A stretch of DNA of 46,831 bases, taken from NCBI GenBank assembly GCA_017458335.1, contig JAFTFT010000001.1, positions 1-46,831 of the forward strand, written 5' to 3'. Position numbers and translations under genes: made by a program. Positions 29,271 to 36,058 of this stretch are shown here, piece by piece. Numbering within the stretch: position 1 is the first letter of the stretch; each line of letters starts with the position of its first letter. Under the pieces are notes generated by a model. The model was not told where the DNA came from. It saw only the letters and a program-made list of their open reading frames with translations, and made no database searches. This stretch comes from Oscillospiraceae bacterium. Lineage in GTDB: Bacteria; Bacillota; Clostridia; Oscillospirales; Oscillospiraceae.

Positions 29271-30821
29271 TTATTCTTCCTCGTCGTTGCTTTCGTTCTC
29301 TTCCTCTTCGTACCGCTCCTGCATCTCGCGTTCTCTCCGTCTGCGGCGTATGGCAGCGGCTCGTCTGCGGCGGCGCTCCCGCTCTTTCCGGTTATGAATG
29401 ACCAACAGGATAGAACAGATGGCAATCAGCACGAGCAGAATAAAGAGCACAATAAGGATCGGGATGGGCGAGCTCCGCTTCACACCGGTGGTTCCGGCAG
29501 GAAGCGCCTCCTGGGTTCCGGCCGGCGGTGTTTCGGACGACGGCTGAACGATGAGCTGCGTCTCCGGCGTTGGCTCCGCTTCGGCCGCCGGCTGCGCCGT
29601 GGCCGCAGGGGGTGTTATGATCGGCTCCGGTGTATCTCTAGTCTGCTCTATCTCCCCTGTCGTGGCAGCTGTTCCCGCTTCGGTCTCGGCCTGTGCGCTT
29701 TCAGCCGCACTGCCCTCGGTTCCGGCTGCGGGCATAGACGTCGCGCTTTGCGCGCTCCCTGCCGCATTGCCTGTCGTTGCGGCGGTCCCCGTCGTTTCCG
29801 TGCTCTGTGTTTCCGCCGTCGTCTGTCCGTCTGCCGTCGTCTGTGCGTCCGCCGTCGTCTGTGCGTCCGCCGAAGTCTCTGCGGTTTTCGCCGCCTCAGC
29901 GGCCGCAAGTTCAGCCGCCCTCTCAGGGTGCTGCTTCAGATCCAGCTCTTCCGTCAGGTTAAAGAAGTGTCCGGCCACGCCTCCCATGACGTCCAGGTCC
30001 CAGATGTTTTGGGTCATGATCGTCAGGATTGCCGGCGTGGGAGTATAAAAGATCGCTGTACAGTGGATGAGGTCGTCCCCCTCTCCGCCCCAGTCGGCGG
30101 CATGTGTCTGGGCGACTTCCCATTTGGATTGTATGTTCCAGTCCCGCTTGAACATATCGTAGGGCTGGGACTTCTTCATATGCTCCAGCACAAAGGGGAA
30201 GCGGTCTTCTCCCCCTTTGAAAAGGGTTTTGGTAATCTCCATCATGAGACGCGCCGTATAGGCGTTGTTGTAGTATTCGCTGGTGAAATAGCTCTCCGGC
30301 AGGTCGGCATACTGTTTTGCCACGTCCGTATAGCTCAGGCCTTCTCTGTCGGCCAGATCCGTGACCAGGGAGTAGAGGCTCGGTCCGCTGGAGTGTTCCA
30401 GCAGGGTGCTCATGGCATATTCCAGCGTGATTCCCGTGACGACCGTTTCCTTCGTCATCTCGCCGCTCTTCAGCTTTTCCGCATAGTACATGCACAACGG
30501 GAGCTTGTACCAGTTCACGCAGCCAAGCCACTCGTCCGCGTTATAGAACCAGGTCTCGTCCGTGCCGGAGTACCAGTACGCGATCGTCATCTTACAGCCG
30601 GGATGGTTCCAGTAGTTCTCATCCAGATAGGCATCCACCCACTGCGTCAGAAGATCCGCGTCGAAGTGGCCGTCCTCCAGCACAGGGGACGGAAGCGTCT
30701 CCGTCAGAGGGAGCGCTTCGGTCGGAGCCTCTTCGGCAAGCGCGGTCAGGTTCCCCGCCTGCATCGAGAACACAAGCACCAGAGCCAGTAACATCGAAAG
30801 TAGTTTTTGAATATTTTTCAT
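29271..30821 (-). CDS. Membrane-anchored class A beta-lactamase-fold protein lacking the catalytic serine
   Basis: The 516-residue protein has a signal peptide (cut near residue 30) and a globular domain (about 48-290), then a long Ala/Thr/Gln/Glu-rich stalk. A membrane helix (about 450-476) is followed by a 40-residue tail, first Arg-rich then Glu-rich. The globular domain follows the class A beta-lactamase/serine hydrolase order: WFYNADEWLG before the nucleophile position, then a tyrosine-rich helix, and a late strand pair ending ILTIMTQNIW. The SxxK motif reads N103-W-Y-K106, SDN reads SSG (144-146) and KTG reads THA (239-241). So the fold is likely but hydrolysis is not. ATG at 30819-30821 is chosen for the GAGG just upstream and the signal peptide. 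Confidence 0.65.
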   Translation of the reverse strand: MKNIQKLLSMLLALVLVFSMQAGNLTALAEEAPTEALPLTETLPSPVLEDGHFDADLLTQWVDAYLDENYWNHPGCKMTIAYWYSGTDETWFYNADEWLGCVNWYKLPLCMYYAEKLKSGEMTKETVVTGITLEYAMSTLLEHSSGPSLYSLVTDLADREGLSYTDVAKQYADLPESYFTSEYYNNAYTARLMMEITKTLFKGGEDRFPFVLEHMKKSQPYDMFKRDWNIQSKWEVAQTHAADWGGEGDDLIHCTAIFYTPTPAILTIMTQNIWDLDVMGGVAGHFFNLTEELDLKQHPERAAELAAAEAAKTAETSADAQTTADAQTTADGQTTAETQSTETTGTAATTGNAAGSAQSATSMPAAGTEGSAAESAQAETEAGTAATTGEIEQTRDTPEPIITPPAATAQPAAEAEPTPETQLIVQPSSETPPAGTQEALPAGTTGVKRSSPIPILIVLFILLVLIAICSILLVIHNRKERERRRRRAAAIRRRRREREMQERYEEEENESNDEEE

Positions 30822-30861
30822 CTTTGCCTCATTCCATATGCCTGAATTGAATCTGCAGACC

Positions 30862-30949: not shown

Positions 30950-30978
30950 TTGTATTTTATCTCCCGGGATGATATAAT
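30950..30978 (+). promoter_or_regulatory. Promoter of the YGPP lipoprotein / radical SAM operon
   Basis: TTGTAT (30950-30955), 17 bases, TATAAT (30973-30978), giving a leader of about 50 bases before the lipoprotein start. It is divergent from the promoter at 30862-30890 with about 60 bases between them. Confidence 0.75.
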
Positions 30979-31037: not shown

Positions 31038-31334
31038 ATGAAACCGAGAAAGAAAAAAGCCATTATGGCCGGGCTGCTTGCGGCCTCCGCGGCCCTGATG
31101 TCCGGGTGCGGTACAGGTCCGGCTCCGGCGCTGTACGGGCCTCCGCCGGCGACGCCGTCCGCCTCCTTTGAGCCGGAGAATAACATTCCCGAGACCGTAT
31201 ACGGACCGCCGGAGATGCTTGACCCCCAATTCGTTCCGGAAGAGAACATCCCGGAGGATGTCTACGGCCCTCCGATGTTCTTTGAAAGCCCAGAGGCAGA
31301 ACCGTCCTCCGCTCCGGCGGATGAAAACCCATGA
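31038..31334 (+). CDS. Small YGPP-repeat lipoprotein, possible radical SAM substrate
   Basis: A 98-residue protein with a basic start (MKPRKKK), a hydrophobic stretch and a lipobox LMSGC (Cys near residue 24). It should therefore be lipid-anchored outside the membrane. The mature part is short, Pro/Glu-rich and without predicted fold. It has three YGPP motifs (ALYGPPP, TVYGPPEM, DVYGPPMF), the last two in near repeats NIPETVYGPP and NIPEDVYGPP. The stop overlaps the start of the radical SAM/SPASM gene (31331-31334), so the two are made together. Tyr/Pro motifs repeated in a tiny protein next to such an enzyme suggest a modified (RiPP-like) lipoprotein. That is inference. SD GGAGG at good spacing. 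Confidence 0.8.
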   Translation: MKPRKKKAIMAGLLAASAALMSGCGTGPAPALYGPPPATPSASFEPENNIPETVYGPPEMLDPQFVPEENIPEDVYGPPMFFESPEAEPSSAPADENP

Positions 31335-32401
31335 AGACAGTCAAAGAGCGAAATATGGACATGCTGGCGGACCATATCCGAGGCCTGTACCGGAAACCGG
31401 ATCTCCGTCAGTTGTTTTTGGAGCTCACGCTCCGGTGCAATGAGCACTGCTTTCACTGCGGCAGCAACTGTATGCCCCAATCCGGGGAAGAACTGAGCGT
31501 TGACGAGTACCGGCGGATTCTGGAAGAGGTAAAAGAAGACTTTGACCTCAGGCGTCTTTATCTCTGCATCACCGGTGGAGAACCCCTTCTGCGGCCTGAG
31601 TTTTTTGACATTCTCGGCTATGCCCATGAACTCGGATACCGCTGGGGGATGACGACAAACGCCACCCTCATCACAAGGGAAGTCGCACACCGGCTGGCAG
31701 AGTCCGGGATGCTCACGGTCTCGGTATCCATCGACGGTCTGGGGGAAACCCACGACCGGCTGCGCGGTCTCCCGGGCGGCTATGACGCGGCGATGAGAGG
31801 GATTCAGAATCTCATTGACGAGAAGGCCTTTCAGAACGTTCAGGTCACCACCGTTGTGAACCATGAAAACATCGGGGAGCTGGACGACCTGTTCCGGGTC
31901 ATGGACGGGCTGGATATCGATTCGTGGCGGGTGATCAACTTGGAGCCGATTGGCCGGGCCCTGCAATGGCCGAACCGGATGCTGACACAGGAAGACTACA
32001 GACGGCTGTTTTCCTTTATCCGTGAAAAACGGCTTGCCGGGTATCCGGTGGAATACGGCTGCAGTCATTATCTCGGTCCGGAGCTGGAAGGCGAGCTGCG
32101 GGACTGGTACTGGCTCTGCAATGCGGGAATCTATACGGCCAGCATCATGGCCAACGGAGACGTAGGCGCCTGTCTGGATATCGAGCGCAGACCTGAGACA
32201 ATCCAGGGAAACATCCGGGAAGCCAGGTTCCGCGACATCTGGGAAAATCGCTTTGAGCTTTTCCGGGAAGACCTCTCTTCAGAGTCGGAATACTGCCGTG
32301 GGTGCAGTCATGCGGATCACTGCCGCGGTGATGCGCATCACAGCTGGGATTACGACAAAAACGAGCCGCGGCTCTGTTTCAAAGGCATGCTGTTTGAGTA
32401 A
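31331..32401 (+). CDS. Radical SAM/SPASM enzyme coupled to the YGPP lipoprotein
   Basis: The 356-residue enzyme has the radical SAM cluster motif C36-x3-C40-x2-C43 (CNEHCFHC), then CITGGEPLLRPEF, MTTNATLIT and VSVSIDGLGETHDRLRG. The C-terminal SPASM region has seven Cys: C244, C263 (12 residues before a Gly), C281, C322, C325, C331 and C349. This matches most of the two-auxiliary-cluster pattern, but one Cys (three residues after C331) is missing. SPASM proteins mature peptides and proteins (thioether, C-C and sulfatase modifications) or act in heme synthesis. The translational overlap with the small YGPP lipoprotein makes that protein the likely substrate. Reaction unknown. Confidence 0.88.
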   Translation: MKTVKERNMDMLADHIRGLYRKPDLRQLFLELTLRCNEHCFHCGSNCMPQSGEELSVDEYRRILEEVKEDFDLRRLYLCITGGEPLLRPEFFDILGYAHELGYRWGMTTNATLITREVAHRLAESGMLTVSVSIDGLGETHDRLRGLPGGYDAAMRGIQNLIDEKAFQNVQVTTVVNHENIGELDDLFRVMDGLDIDSWRVINLEPIGRALQWPNRMLTQEDYRRLFSFIREKRLAGYPVEYGCSHYLGPELEGELRDWYWLCNAGIYTASIMANGDVGACLDIERRPETIQGNIREARFRDIWENRFELFREDLSSESEYCRGCSHADHCRGDAHHSWDYDKNEPRLCFKGMLFE

Positions 32402-32510: not shown

Positions 32511-33677
32511 ATGAAAAAGAATTGGAAAAAGCTGTTATCTGTCCTGCTTCTGTCCGCACTGCTGTGCGCGCTGCCGGGTACTCTGGCCTGGGCCACTGAC
32601 ATCAGTGCGATCACGCCTGACGGTCCTGCTGGCAATCAGGTCGTCGAGGACCAGACCGCTGGAAGTCAGACTGGCGGGACACATTCCGATGGAACAGGAT
32701 CCGGCACCTCCACTGGAACAGATACCACAGGTGGGGATTCCGGCAACACTGGCTCCGGAACTTCTACGGAAGGAAGCGGCGCTACGAGTGGAGATACCGG
32801 TGGAGCCGGCACGGGCTCGGGTGCCGGCACCACGGGTGATACGGGTACTTCTGGAAGCCAGACCAGCGGAACGGGTTCCGGCAGCTCCACAGGAACGGGA
32901 GGCACAACCGGCGGTTCGACCACATCCGATACCACCACAGGTCAGAGCGGTTCCGATTCCGGTTCAACCGCAGCAACGGAGGCCACCCCAACACCGACTA
33001 TAACTCCGACTCCAACTGCAACGCCCACTCCGACCCCTACTCCGTCCAAACCTGTCATAACAAAGGATCCAACGGATGAGACCGTGGATGTGGGCGGCGA
33101 CTGCTGGTTTATTGCATACAGCGACGCCCCTTACGCTGTCTGGCACTTTGTCAGCCCGGACGGGAAGACAGACTACCGTTACGACGCCCAGGAAATTGCA
33201 AAGGCTTTTCCGGGACTTCAGATTGAAAACGGAAACCGGGACAGTCTCCACCTTGTCAACATTCCCGCGGAAATGAACGGCTGGCGCGCCGGCTGTGAGT
33301 TCCGGAACGACATTGGCAGCGTCAGGTCAGGCTATGCCGTCGTTCATGTAAACGGCGCTCCCGCTGCAACGCCGTCGCCGAGTCCGTCCGCCACGCCCAC
33401 TGCGAAGCCGAGCCCGACTCCGACGCCGTCCGCGACTACAACGCCGGCTCCCACTTCGGTCCCGGTTGCCACGCCGAGTCCTGCGGTGAGTCCGACACCG
33501 GAAGGGACCGGCGAGCCGCCCGCAGCGCTGAATCGCGGCGGAAAGATTTTCCTGCTCTTCGGAGCAGCCGCTCTGGTTGTGGGCGCCGCCGCCATCGGGA
33601 CGATTCTCACGGTATCCAAACGGACGTCGGCAAAAGAGGCTTATACCTATAAGAACAGCACAAGACGCAGAAAATAA
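32511..33677 (+). CDS. Mucin-like anchored surface protein with an Ig-like domain
   Basis: The 388-residue protein has a signal peptide (cut after AWA near residue 28). A Gly/Ser/Thr-rich segment (about 45-150) and a Thr/Pro stalk follow. An Ig-like domain (about 180-282) contains two Cys (GGDCWFIAYSDA and GCEFRNDIG) that likely form the core disulfide. A second Pro/Thr/Ser stalk leads to a membrane helix (about 344-368) and a short basic tail. The layout suggests a stalked display or adhesion domain. The ligand is unknown. It follows the radical SAM gene by 109 bases with no clear terminator, so it may be co-transcribed. ATG at 32511 follows GTGAGGA. Confidence 0.75.
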   Translation: MKKNWKKLLSVLLLSALLCALPGTLAWATDISAITPDGPAGNQVVEDQTAGSQTGGTHSDGTGSGTSTGTDTTGGDSGNTGSGTSTEGSGATSGDTGGAGTGSGAGTTGDTGTSGSQTSGTGSGSSTGTGGTTGGSTTSDTTTGQSGSDSGSTAATEATPTPTITPTPTATPTPTPTPSKPVITKDPTDETVDVGGDCWFIAYSDAPYAVWHFVSPDGKTDYRYDAQEIAKAFPGLQIENGNRDSLHLVNIPAEMNGWRAGCEFRNDIGSVRSGYAVVHVNGAPAATPSPSPSATPTAKPSPTPTPSATTTPAPTSVPVATPSPAVSPTPEGTGEPPAALNRGGKIFLLFGAAALVVGAAAIGTILTVSKRTSAKEAYTYKNSTRRRK

Positions 33678-33750: not shown

Positions 33751-35301
33751 TTATGCGGCCGCCTGCTCGTAGAGGGTCTCCAGCATTTCCGGCGTTACGG
33801 AGCCGCGCTGGTTGTACACGACCTCCCCGTGGCGGTTCAGGACAATGGTCTGCGGCATGGCGGTGGTCCCGCCCACAAGATCCCAGATCACTTCGTCGTC
33901 GTTTTCAACGGCAAATGGCATCACCCAGTCGCTTCCGTGCTCGTTCAGGTATTCCTGCGGGTCTTCGTCCACAATGTCGGAGTGCAGGGCCAGCATCGCG
34001 ATATCGCCCTCATGGACTTTGTACAGCTCGCTGAAATACGGCAGTTCCTTCACGCAGGGCCCGCAGTAGGTGGCCCAGAGGTTGATGAACACGGGCTTTC
34101 CGCGGTAATCGGCAAGGTGGAATTCGCTTCCGTCCAGACAGGTGATCGTGAAATCCTTCAGCTGCTGCCCGACTTCGCTCCCCTCAGGCGCATCGCTCGA
34201 CCAGTCTGCCGGAGCTGCTTCCTGTGCGGATGCTTCCGTATCCGCGGCAACAGGCTCAGCGACGGCGGCCTCCTCCTTATTGATGTTGGGATCGAGGAAG
34301 TTATAGTAGACCAGCGCCGTGCAGAGAACCGCAAGCGCAATCCCCCAGGCAATCTTCCCGAACTTTTTGCGCTTTGCTTCGGAATCGGGTCTGTCGTCCG
34401 CGCAGCCGCCTGCCGGCGCCTTCAGGGTAACGCTTCCGGCCTTGAGGCTGATTGCCTTTTGATTGCACACATCCATGCATTTGGCGCAGTGAATACACTC
34501 GTGGTCGCCCACATGCCGCACGTCCATGCCGCAGTTTCGTACACAGGCGCCGCAGTGGTTGCAGCGGGTGGGATCCACCTTCACGCCCACAACCGCGACC
34601 TTGCTGAAGAGGCCGTAGATTGCGCCGAGAGGGCAGATGAAGCGGCAGAAGCTGCGGTAGCAGAACACGCAGGCCAGGCCGATGACGAGCATGATGACAA
34701 ACTTCCGCGTGAACAGGATGTTCAGCATTCCGAAATCGCCGGCATTGGCGGGATTTGAGAGCAGGAAGATCGCCCCTTCAAAGGTGCCGGCCGGACAGAT
34801 GTACTTGCAGAAGCCGGGGATCGCCACGCCGTGAACGATCCCGTACCAGGCGGTGATCCCGATGACAAAGACGCCGAGGATCACATATTTCAGGTACGAC
34901 AGCGCGCGGGTTGCGCGGCTTTTTTTCATCTTCGGCGTGGGCAGCTTGTGCAGCAGTTCCTGGATCAGCCCCAACGGGCAGAGCCAGCCGCAGATCGTAC
35001 GGCCGAGGATCAATCCGTAGAGCATGAGGATGCCGAAGACGTAGAAACCGATCTGTTTATTCGTGGTACCGATCGCGTTCTGCAGCGCGCCCAGCGGACA
35101 GGCCCCGACCGCGCCCGGGCAGGAATAACAGTTGAAGCCCGGCACACAGATGCCCTTGGTGGTCGGGGTTTTGCTCTTGTAGATTTCACCCTCAAGGAAG
35201 CCCTTGAGGTGGGCATTATACAGCAGCGCACAATAAAGCTGTATGAGCCGTCTCTTGGACGGGCGGTGGGAAGCCCACCAGGATGATTTTACATTATCCA
35301 A
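33751..35301 (-). CDS. Polyferredoxin-thioredoxin (TlpA) fusion membrane protein
   Basis: A roughly 516-residue protein that fuses a NapH/CcoG-like membrane ferredoxin with an external TlpA-type thioredoxin. The N-terminal part has CVPGFNCYSCPGAVGACPLGA, CGWLCPLG, CKYICPAGTFEGA and CRFICPLGAIYG between about five helices. It is followed by two 4Fe-4S motifs (CNHCGACVRNCG and CIHCAKCMDVC). After another helix and an acidic linker comes the thioredoxin domain with C413-G-P-C416 in WATYCGPC and a cis-Pro in TTAMPQTI. Electrons probably pass from cytosolic ferredoxin across the membrane to the external thiol pair. TTG at 35301 is preferred (GGAG ten bases before); GTG 35310 and TTG 35307 are alternatives. 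Confidence 0.82.
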   Translation of the reverse strand: MDNVKSSWWASHRPSKRRLIQLYCALLYNAHLKGFLEGEIYKSKTPTTKGICVPGFNCYSCPGAVGACPLGALQNAIGTTNKQIGFYVFGILMLYGLILGRTICGWLCPLGLIQELLHKLPTPKMKKSRATRALSYLKYVILGVFVIGITAWYGIVHGVAIPGFCKYICPAGTFEGAIFLLSNPANAGDFGMLNILFTRKFVIMLVIGLACVFCYRSFCRFICPLGAIYGLFSKVAVVGVKVDPTRCNHCGACVRNCGMDVRHVGDHECIHCAKCMDVCNQKAISLKAGSVTLKAPAGGCADDRPDSEAKRKKFGKIAWGIALAVLCTALVYYNFLDPNINKEEAAVAEPVAADTEASAQEAAPADWSSDAPEGSEVGQQLKDFTITCLDGSEFHLADYRGKPVFINLWATYCGPCVKELPYFSELYKVHEGDIAMLALHSDIVDEDPQEYLNEHGSDWVMPFAVENDDEVIWDLVGGTTAMPQTIVLNRHGEVVYNQRGSVTPEMLETLYEQAAA

Positions 35302-36058
35302 GGCCAACACACTCCGTACAGATTCTGATCGCCTTGTTGACGACCGCCGTCATGCTGCCGTTGCGGATGCCGGCAACAATAAAGACCACCGCGACGGCCA
35401 GTATCACCCAGCGCAGAACATTCACATTCCGCGTGGGCGCTGCCGTCTGCGCCTCCGCTTTGATTCCGCTTGCCTTCTCTTCCCTGATGCGCTCCATGAT
35501 GGCATCATACTCGCGCTGAATGCTTCTTCCCTGCAGGACTGCCGAGACAATCAGGACGGCAAATCCCAGAATGATCCACGGGAATACATGGACCGCGAGC
35601 GCGCCCATTACCTGCTCAAGGTCTCCGTTGGGGAAATGCTCTCCGTTCGTCATGTAGATCAGAATCGGAAGCATGCACAGGCCAAAGCCGCACCAGCCGC
35701 CGTACAGAAGCTTTTTCTGCATGGCCTGCTCCTTCTTCATGGCATCACTGGGCTGAGCAACGCGCGTACGCATCAGATCACGGTTCAGCTCGATGTCCTT
35801 GACGGGTTTGTTCTCGTTTTCATCCCGGACGTTCAGCACCGCGCAGGCCACAGTTACCGCCACAGCAAGCAGAAATACCGGCAATACGGGTTTCAGCCCC
35901 GCGGCGGCCTTGTCACGGGTATAGACCCAGGCCAGCGGATCTTCCTTCTTTTCGGCAATGCCGTCACGGTAGATCCCGACTGCCGAGACAGCCAGCATCA
36001 CAATCAGCGCCACGCACAACAGTGACTGCGCGATCAGCAGGATCCTGTTTCTTGTCAC
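35294..36058 (-). CDS. Membrane protein ending in a CD1871A-like CXXC segment
   Basis: The 254-residue protein has about five membrane helices. Its last 30 residues read VIAGIRNG-like VAGIRNGSMTAVVNKAIRICTECVGLG. That resembles the whole CD1871A family, a roughly 40-residue peptide with one helix and a C-terminal CxxC, usually encoded beside 4Fe-4S proteins. Here the peptide is fused to a larger membrane protein of no recognised family. The CTEC pair may exchange electrons with the polyferredoxin-thioredoxin encoded by the overlapping next gene. GTG at 36056-36058 is chosen since AAAGGAG lies ten bases upstream; GTG at 36067 is too close to it. Confidence 0.72.
   Translation of the reverse strand: MTRNRILLIAQSLLCVALIVMLAVSAVGIYRDGIAEKKEDPLAWVYTRDKAAAGLKPVLPVFLLAVAVTVACAVLNVRDENENKPVKDIELNRDLMRTRVAQPSDAMKKEQAMQKKLLYGGWCGFGLCMLPILIYMTNGEHFPNGDLEQVMGALAVHVFPWIILGFAVLIVSAVLQGRSIQREYDAIMERIREEKASGIKAEAQTAAPTRNVNVLRWVILAVAVVFIVAGIRNGSMTAVVNKAIRICTECVGLG

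What the first reader, a model, noticed from the sequence alone, without database searches (positions are those of the whole stretch)
31038..32401. YGPP-repeat lipoprotein overlapped by a radical SAM/SPASM enzyme: candidate undescribed modified-lipoprotein system
A 98-residue lipoprotein has an almost unstructured mature part with three YGPP motifs, two of them within near repeats (NIPE[T/D]VYGPP). Its stop overlaps the start of a SPASM-type radical SAM enzyme, and one promoter serves both. Tiny repeat-bearing proteins fused in translation to SPASM enzymes are usually their substrates. But known SPASM substrates are leader peptides or sulfatases, not lipoproteins that are exported and lipidated. 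If right, Tyr or Pro in YGPP is modified before export and shown on the cell surface. I know of no named system with this motif.
Basis: partly seen in the sequence, partly recalled or inferred. Interest (0 to 1): 0.85.

Follow-up and report, generated by a model that had tools for sequence, protein, structure and literature searches.

The report
Surface lipoprotein with radical-SAM-modified tyrosines
A small surface-anchored bacterial protein carries three copies of a Tyr-Gly-Pro-Pro motif next to a radical enzyme that probably rewrites them, perhaps by a chemistry so far described for a class of natural-product peptides, and the same pairing occurs in many bacterial groups.

Summary
A 98-aa lipoprotein (31038-31334), whose only three tyrosines all lie in YGPP, overlaps by ATGA a 356-aa radical SAM/SPASM enzyme. 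The pairing is real: in 98 homologous loci YG-x-P tops all 8000 ab.c patterns in neighbouring exported-looking ORFs (76 of 98; scrambles at most 7). In 391 genomes of the class, the YGPP repeat was found in 7, all among the 16 with the enzyme. No third gene recurs. The system is not unnamed: the best family is NCBIfam TIGR04133 (rSAM_w_lipo), partner family TIGR04134. The window pair falls below both cut-offs and is a diverged branch with tandem sites. The near-invariant core is X-Tyr-Gly, usually with Pro at +3. This resembles the substrate of cyanobacterial spliceases, SPASM enzymes that excise tyramine and leave a backbone ketoamide: PlpA2-derived tags read PIRP(L/G)YGLPI, and a Nostoc precursor ends LYGLPPELF. 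I propose that the enzyme splices each YGPP in the cytosol and the exported protein displays ketoamides. The chemistry is inferred, not shown: enzyme sisterhood with spliceases is unresolved, and Scott 2022, the paper most likely to overlap, could not be read.

The parts
30950..30978 (+). possible promoter: weak -35 TTGTAT, extended -10 TGATATAAT
   Evidence: read by eye; not reported by the scan
31038..31334 (+). YGPP lipoprotein, 98 aa, lipobox Cys24, proposed substrate
31134..31145 (+). YGPP site 1 (L-Y33-G-P-P)
31167..31229 (+). repeat unit with YGPP site 2 (V-Y55-G-P-P at 31200-31211)
31230..31295 (+). repeat unit with YGPP site 3 (V-Y76-G-P-P at 31263-31274)
31331..32401 (+). radical SAM/SPASM enzyme, 356 aa; CX3CX2C at residues 36-43 and six Cys of the SPASM region invariant in a 21-row alignment (263, 281, 322, 325, 331, 349)

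Best explanation
A two-gene, leader-independent modification system for surface proteins. [quoted passage not shown] The protein is then exported, lipidated on Cys24 and displayed, presenting three electrophilic ketoamides on a disordered tether, perhaps to inhibit or trap proteases. Shown: pairing, motif conservation, co-occurrence. Inferred: that Tyr-Gly is modified (very likely), the splicing chemistry (about even), the protease role (speculative).
For: (1) YG in an exported-looking neighbour ORF at 90 of 98 loci (GY 39); YG.P at 76 of 98, first of all 8000 ab.c patterns, with GY.P 7, PY.G 5, GP.Y 5, PG.Y 3, YP.G 0. (2) YGPP-repeat profile: 7 of 391 genomes of the class, all among the 16 enzyme-bearing ones; hypergeometric 4e-11, or 2e-6 for the four genomes that gave no rows to the profile. 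(3) L090 and L074, without an adjacent partner, have unlinked YGPP proteins in their genomes. (4) The carrier changes (lipoprotein, TM, dockerin, CarboxypepD_reg-like), the motif stays. (5) Of 20 examined TIGR04134-like loci, all 14 with a radical SAM gene in the locus have the N-terminal YG, but only 2 of 6 without (L121 and L131 have it; L127, L129, L132, L133 lack it). (6) No third gene family recurs in more than 3 other loci. (7) The characterised splicease PlpXY acts naturally on MYG and LYG and does not need the leader; PlpA2-derived tags read PIRPGYGLPI and PIRPLYGLPI (PMC10533398, passages); a Nostoc precursor beside a nif11-class maturase 3 ends ALYGLPPELF. (8) TIGR04103 is the second-best model for two of nine scanned relatives (L019, L043).
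Against: No mass data. In the tree the YG clade (100/98) and the splicease+GDL clade (97/99) are separate and their sisterhood is unresolved. For the window enzyme TIGR04103 is only the eighth model (113 bits, cut-off 725), behind heme b synthase and mycofactocin maturase, and at E <= 1e-30 it is not listed for L070, L077 and L092. PlpX acts with the RRE protein PlpY; nothing like the small protein beside the Nostoc maturase is near these enzymes. Nine of the 16 enzyme-bearing genomes gave no hit to the repeat profile, their partners being more divergent. Some partners carry YA (L018, L062, L097), and DUF1843 precursors near splicease-like enzymes vary at the Gly. L131 has the N-terminal YG without an enzyme in its locus. 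For L093 no partner was found, though its contig ends at the enzyme's end. All 98 loci were found by enzyme similarity; the 80 named ones are the best of 404 confirmed candidates from a capped list, and partners were picked by a heuristic.
Confidence: 0.5

Rival explanations
1. The enzyme modifies the YG motif by another reaction: a Tyr-centred crosslink (C-C or ether), Tyr beta-carbon oxidation or desaturation, epimerisation, or a Pro modification.
For: SPASM enzymes are known for several of these (recalled). The AlphaFold model is close in the PDB to SuiB, BlsE, SkfB, the sactipeptide-type enzyme 5why, anSME and PqqE alike. The mycofactocin maturase, which acts on a C-terminal Val-Tyr (MftA ends GVY; its chemistry is recalled), is the third-best family. 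A [YF]xP lies 11 residues before Tyr in 66 of 148 YGPP sites and could be a crosslink partner.
Against: By eye no partner residue at a fixed distance is common to all carriers: only Tyr, Gly and mostly Pro are. The window protein's one Cys is the lipid Cys, so a thioether there is unlikely. A Gly after Tyr is part of the known splicease motif.
Confidence: 0.38
2. The lipoprotein is not a substrate but an accessory or carrier protein, the YGPP repeat being a docking site for the enzyme, which acts on a small molecule or another protein.
For: Tandem Pro-rich motifs are typical docking sites (recalled); no product was seen.
Against: The partners look exported while the enzyme has no signal peptide, so a lasting docking role is unlikely. 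No other gene recurs at the loci. Unlinked YGPP proteins occur in enzyme-bearing genomes, as for several substrates of one enzyme.
Confidence: 0.09
3. Chance neighbourhood of a low-complexity Pro-rich lipoprotein and an unrelated SPASM enzyme.
For: YGPP does occur by chance elsewhere: one profile hit (L111) is a zinc-ribbon-like protein.
Against: Motif rank 1 of 8000, presence at 76 of 98 loci, co-occurrence 7 of 7.
Confidence: 0.01

Closest known systems
NCBIfam TIGR04133 (rSAM_w_lipo) with TIGR04134 (lipo_with_rSAM, 'radical SAM-associated putative lipoprotein')
   Same: Best family of the window enzyme (251 bits, E 1.3e-74); same two-gene layout; partner lipoproteins carry MYGQP, CYGMPP or EYGMP near the lipid Cys; the 20 YG enzymes sampled form one clade of a 32-row tree.
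   Different: Window enzyme below the curated cut-off (425); its lipoprotein has no TIGR04134 match; it has three tandem YGPP sites where Bacteroidota partners mostly have one.
Spliceases PlpX/PlpY and spliceotides (IPR026482; nif11-class peptide radical SAM maturase 3, TIGR04103; that the two labels are one family is recalled)
   Same: SPASM radical SAM enzyme; substrate X-Tyr-Gly, in the PlpA2-derived tags and the Nostoc precursor with Pro at +3; leader not needed.
   Different: No Nif11 or NHLP leader, no PlpY-like ORF found, substrate is an exported anchored protein, several sites in tandem, separate clade.
GDL-motif peptide / DUF1843 radical SAM maturases (TIGR03913)
   Same: Radical SAM/SPASM enzymes about 48% identical to the Nostoc maturase, with precursors that hold MLYGG, RPYGPA or KPYGVA near the N-terminus.
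   Different: Small precursors without an export signal noticed, Gly not invariant (YAAG, YMAT), different clade.
Mycofactocin maturase MftC
   Same: SPASM enzyme acting on a Val-Tyr (MftA ends GVY; chemistry recalled); third-best family for the window enzyme.
   Different: C-terminal Tyr, MftB chaperone gene, separate branch.

Membership tests
TIGR04133 rSAM_w_lipo | whole-protein score at or above the curated cut-off (425 bits) | tested here: not met
   251.3 bits; Bacteroidales L029, L032, L043 reach 470-567 and Treponema L070 451
TIGR04133 rSAM_w_lipo | gene beside a small exported lipoprotein | tested here: met
   ATGA overlap
TIGR04134 lipo_with_rSAM | score at or above 39.8 bits | tested here: not met
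   no match in G000 (where no control rang; the same model rang in 11 of 15 genomes) nor for the window protein at E <= 1; the relative L019 scores 52.3
TIGR04134 lipo_with_rSAM | YG-x-P motif in the exported part (seen in its members, not a stated definition) | tested here: met
   three YGPP; members CMYGQPHAD, CYGMPEN, CEYGSPHAN
Splicease PlpX / TIGR04103 | family score (cut-off 725 bits) | tested here: not met
   113.2 bits for the window enzyme
Splicease PlpX / TIGR04103 | substrate motif X-Tyr-Gly | tested here: met
   LYG, VYG, VYG in the window; PlpXY acts on MYG and LYG
Splicease PlpX / TIGR04103 | partner RRE protein PlpY | tested here: not met
   no blastp hit at E <= 1 to the small protein beside the Nostoc maturase among 3193 ORFs of 97 loci; that this protein is PlpY-like is inferred from its position
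Splicease PlpX / TIGR04103 | tyramine excision, about -135 Da | not testable with these tools
   needs mass spectrometry
Radical SAM/SPASM | CX3CX2C, SPASM domain with auxiliary-cluster Cys | tested here: met
   Pfam PF04055 and PF13186 over cut-off; invariant Cys; model mean pLDDT 91.4

The most novel reading that the evidence does not exclude
A widespread family of surface-protein spliceases, seen here in Bacteroidota, Bacillota, Spirochaetota, Coriobacteria, Fibrobacter and a bin labelled Ktedonobacter, excises tyramine from YGxP sites of lipoproteins, TM-anchored and dockerin proteins, so that gut and rumen bacteria display arrays of backbone ketoamides (made from Val in about half of the sites) on their surface as covalent protease traps or adhesive electrophiles.
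Probability: 0.4. Interest if true: 0.92.

Novelty: new variant of a known kind. Interest (0 to 1): 0.72.

Why it matters
The pair rSAM_w_lipo / lipo_with_rSAM has names in NCBIfam, but the searches of the held library found no paper that names it, so its chemistry and function appear open. The X-Tyr-Gly(-x-Pro) match to the characterised splicease substrate gives it a specific, mass-testable hypothesis: -135 Da per site, -405 Da for the window lipoprotein. If right, backbone-edited ketoamides are not confined to RiPP peptides but are displayed on cell surfaces of gut and rumen bacteria, and enzymes that work without a leader or PlpY partner would be useful for protein labelling.

Tried and rejected
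Chance or low-complexity origin was rejected. A third partner gene (RRE, transporter, protease) was looked for: no ORF family recurs in more than 3 other loci at blastp E <= 1e-6, the one recurring in 3 being itself another YGPP protein, and no ORF resembles the small protein beside the Nostoc maturase. The flanks searched are short (1.5-2.5 kb per side, less at contig ends). Sisterhood of the YG enzymes with spliceases was tested with a 32-row tree and not resolved. A phage link was tested: two distant hits (27.8 and 28.8% identity) among 50,697 records. Foldseek gave only generic SPASM and radical SAM neighbours. One unlinked profile hit (L111, G367:C39) is a zinc-ribbon-like protein. The phylum search with the TIGR04133 model gave 2 of 398 genomes at E <= 1e-60, none over the cut-off, and 0 of 14 controls. 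A Bacteroidales RiPP-mining paper (PMC10352776) holds none of the terms lipoprotein, lipobox, TIGR04, signal peptide, spliceotide.

Rows dropped or doubtful: L002 (25% identical stretch of another enzyme), L020 and L021 (duplicates) were left out of all partner counts. L055 is the same record as L004 (identical enzyme, 82,515-base contig); its automatic partner pick is a wrong frame, and L066's pick has a spurious N-terminal part; both stayed in the counts of 90 and 98. Of the 98 loci, assigned no partner to L018, L028, L062, L067 (269 bases before the enzyme's frame), L074, L090, L093 (contig ends at the enzyme) and L097. On reading, L018 has YAPP and then MYGSP, L097 and L062 have YAGP, L028 has VYGTP in a downstream cytosolic-looking protein; L074 and L090 have unlinked YGPP proteins. 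The permutation counts use partners chosen for YG; the unselected test is. The background contains a few real YGPP ORFs (L055, L092, L096), so it overstates chance. Of the 26 TIGR04134 matches listed, 20 had loci and were examined.

A3 was rebuilt from real 22-mers.

Full report
OBSERVATION. ORF 31038-31334 (+) gives a 98-aa protein with a lipobox ending at Cys24 and YGPP at residues 33, 55 and 76. Those are its only tyrosines, and Cys24 its only cysteine. Of 200,000 shuffles of its residues, 7 held two or more YGPP and none held three. Its stop overlaps the start of ORF 31331-32401 by ATGA. That ORF encodes a 356-aa enzyme matching Pfam Radical_SAM and SPASM above their cut-offs. The promoter claim is weak: the scan found nothing on the + strand, though an extended -10 is visible by eye at 30970-30978.

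WHAT FAMILY. The best of 81 NCBIfam families for the enzyme is TIGR04133, rSAM_w_lipo (251.3 bits, E 1.3e-74, cut-off 425). A companion family TIGR04134, lipo_with_rSAM, exists too. RefSeq annotates the pair side by side in Parabacteroides distasonis and Treponema saccharophilum. So the general system has been named, as a 'hypoth_equivalog'. In the held library no paper was found with these accessions or names. The window pair is a diverged branch. Relatives run from 567 bits (Bacteroidales L043) and 451 bits (Treponema L070) through 386 bits (L019) and 334 bits (L047) to 267 bits (Ruminococcus flavefaciens L092) and 251 bits (window). L019 is a bridge: its enzyme is 37% identical to the window's, and its lipoprotein (GCGMYGPPPRSYY...) passes the TIGR04134 cut-off with 52.3 bits.

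RELATIVES. The enzyme is sporadic: 3 of 60 genomes (the window's own and two of 36 others of its genus), and 16 of 391 genomes of the class at E <= 1e-50. The class is Clostridia by NCBI's lineage of a same-genus record, L055 'Oscillospiraceae bacterium'. Their titles name Bacteroidota, Clostridia and other Bacillota, Spirochaetota, Coriobacteriaceae/Eggerthellaceae, Fibrobacter and a bin labelled Ktedonobacter. Together with 18 loci from whole genomes this gives 98 loci; L055 and L004 are the same record.

THE PARTNER. Among 210 exported-looking ORFs, not chosen for the motif, near the enzyme in 95 of the 98 loci, YG occurs at 90 loci and GY at 39. Of all 8000 patterns of the form ab.c, YG.P ranks first with 76 of 98 loci. 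The next three (DV.G 43, VY.P 42, GP.P 34) can overlap it, and scrambles of the same letters reach at most 7. Of 90 assigned partners, 68 lie upstream within 60 nt or overlapping and 12 downstream. They hold 231 YG motifs. The residue before Tyr is V 119, L 30, A 17, M 16, C 13. Position +3 is Pro in 182 of 231. The carriers differ: 53 of 90 have a strict lipobox and 10 have a TM segment after residue 45. Three tested Ruminococcus-type partners carry Dockerin_1 over its cut-off. L031 carries CarboxypepD_reg over the cut-off; L032 has it only below. The motif is constant, the carrier is not, which is what is expected of a modification site. The motif's core is Tyr-Gly: clades with KYGVYEP, AYGMREP or TDYGIEE lack Pro at +3.

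SPECIFICITY. A profile of the 22-residue clostridial repeat (A3) was run over what is, by count and handles, the same 391-genome sample of the class. It hit 7 genomes, all among the 16 enzyme-bearing ones, and none of the other 375. Nine of the 16 were not hit. If hits were random the chance of 7 in 16 would be 4e-11. Four of the seven (G146, G256, G258, G367) contributed no row to the profile: chance 2e-6. One extra, unlinked hit is a zinc-ribbon-like coincidence. Of ten further enzyme-bearing genomes five have the repeat. Among them are the genomes of L090 and L074, whose enzymes have no adjacent partner: there a YGPP lipoprotein and a YGPP membrane protein lie elsewhere. In 15 enzyme-bearing genomes TIGR04134 rang in 11, in 9 over its cut-off. 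Of the 20 loci examined, all 14 with a radical SAM gene in the locus have the N-terminal YG. Of the 6 without, L127, L129, L132 and L133 lack it, and L131 and L121 have it; L121 lies about 1.9 kb upstream of L126 in the same cluster.

NO THIRD GENE. All-against-all blastp of 3193 flanking ORFs from 97 loci found no family present near the enzyme in more than 3 other loci. The one present in three is another YGPP protein. No ORF resembles the small protein beside the Nostoc maturase. Within these short flanks it is a two-gene system without a conserved RRE, transporter or protease.

MECHANISM. A SPASM enzyme that acts at Tyr-Gly is known: PlpXY excises tyramine at XYG and leaves a ketoamide. 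I read this in passages of PMC10533398 and PMC11002830. The latter calls the modification widespread and mentions its use for protease inhibition; PMC11117315 (one passage) states that spliceotide products are protease inhibitors. [quoted passage not shown] The tag table of PMC10533398 lists PlpA2-derived PIRPGYGLPI and PIRPLYGLPI, i.e. Y-G-x-P, and AVAAGYGVVFP; in FtsZ 2 of 16 placements, both with PIRPGYGLPI, were accepted. Independently, a Nostoc plasmid carries a Nif11 precursor ending ALYGLPPELF beside a 'nif11-class peptide radical SAM maturase 3'. Compare VAMYGMPIASY (L024), ILYGPPQPLYGIPP (L022) and VYGPPEWF. I therefore propose splicing at each YGPP in the cytosol before export. That Tyr-Gly is the modified site I hold very likely (about 0.9); that the reaction is tyramine excision, about even. 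A surface role as covalent protease trap is speculation; Val before Tyr would place Val in the position that faces an elastase-like protease (recalled).

AGAINST. The 32-row tree gives the YG enzymes as one clade (100/98) and the splicease plus GDL enzymes as another (97/99) but does not join them. For the window enzyme TIGR04103 is only the eighth family. PlpX acts with PlpY; nothing like it was found here. A few partners have YA instead of YG. The AlphaFold model (mean pLDDT 91.4) resembles SuiB, BlsE, SkfB, anSME and PqqE alike and does not choose a reaction.

NOVELTY. Known: the family names and the pairing in Bacteroidota and Treponema. Not found in the held library: any chemistry for the family, the clostridial YGPP branch, or its link to spliceases. 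Scott et al. 2022 (Chem 8:2659), whose title speaks of 'peptides and proteins' (reference list seen), is not held. It may cover part of this, which lowers my novelty claim.

Noticed in passing
L062 429-1898 (-): A 490-aa protein divergent from the enzyme carries VVYAGPSYF three times and VLYAGPP once: a YAGP variant of the motif in a carrier without Pfam match.
   Followed up: partly
L077 3518-3988 (+); L028 3513-4346 (+): Cytosolic-looking proteins with VLYGPPKT or KVYGTPRS next to enzymes of one small clade; the modification may also serve intracellular proteins.
   Followed up: partly
L063, L065, L072, L073, L080, L083, L086, L092, L098, L100: Ruminococcus-type partners combine YG sites with dockerin-like repeats (by eye; Dockerin_1 confirmed in the three tested: L092, L063, L098), suggesting attachment to cellulosomes; L092 and L096 have further YGPP ORFs nearby.
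   Followed up: partly
L141 28-743; L143 2153-2866; L145 2287-2742: DUF1843 precursors next to splicease-like enzymes hold MLYGG, KPYGVA, RPYGPA, QPYGAG or YAA/YMA variants near the N-terminus: a likely X-Tyr-Gly site.
   Followed up: partly
G853 (genome of L101), loci L153 and L157: One coriobacterial genome appears to carry two YGPP lipoprotein/enzyme pairs.
   Followed up: no
window 33751-35310 (-): Fusion of a NapH-like membrane polyferredoxin with a C-terminal ResA-like thiol-disulfide oxidoreductase in one 519-aa ORF.
   Followed up: no
window 29271-30824 (-): Exported-looking protein with a Beta-lactamase2-type domain (26.2 bits, cut-off 22), a long Ala/Thr/Glu-rich linker and a C-terminal TM segment.
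   Followed up: no
window 32511-33677 (+): Gly/Ser/Thr-rich and TPTP-rich exported-looking protein with a C-terminal TM segment, downstream of the enzyme.
   Followed up: no
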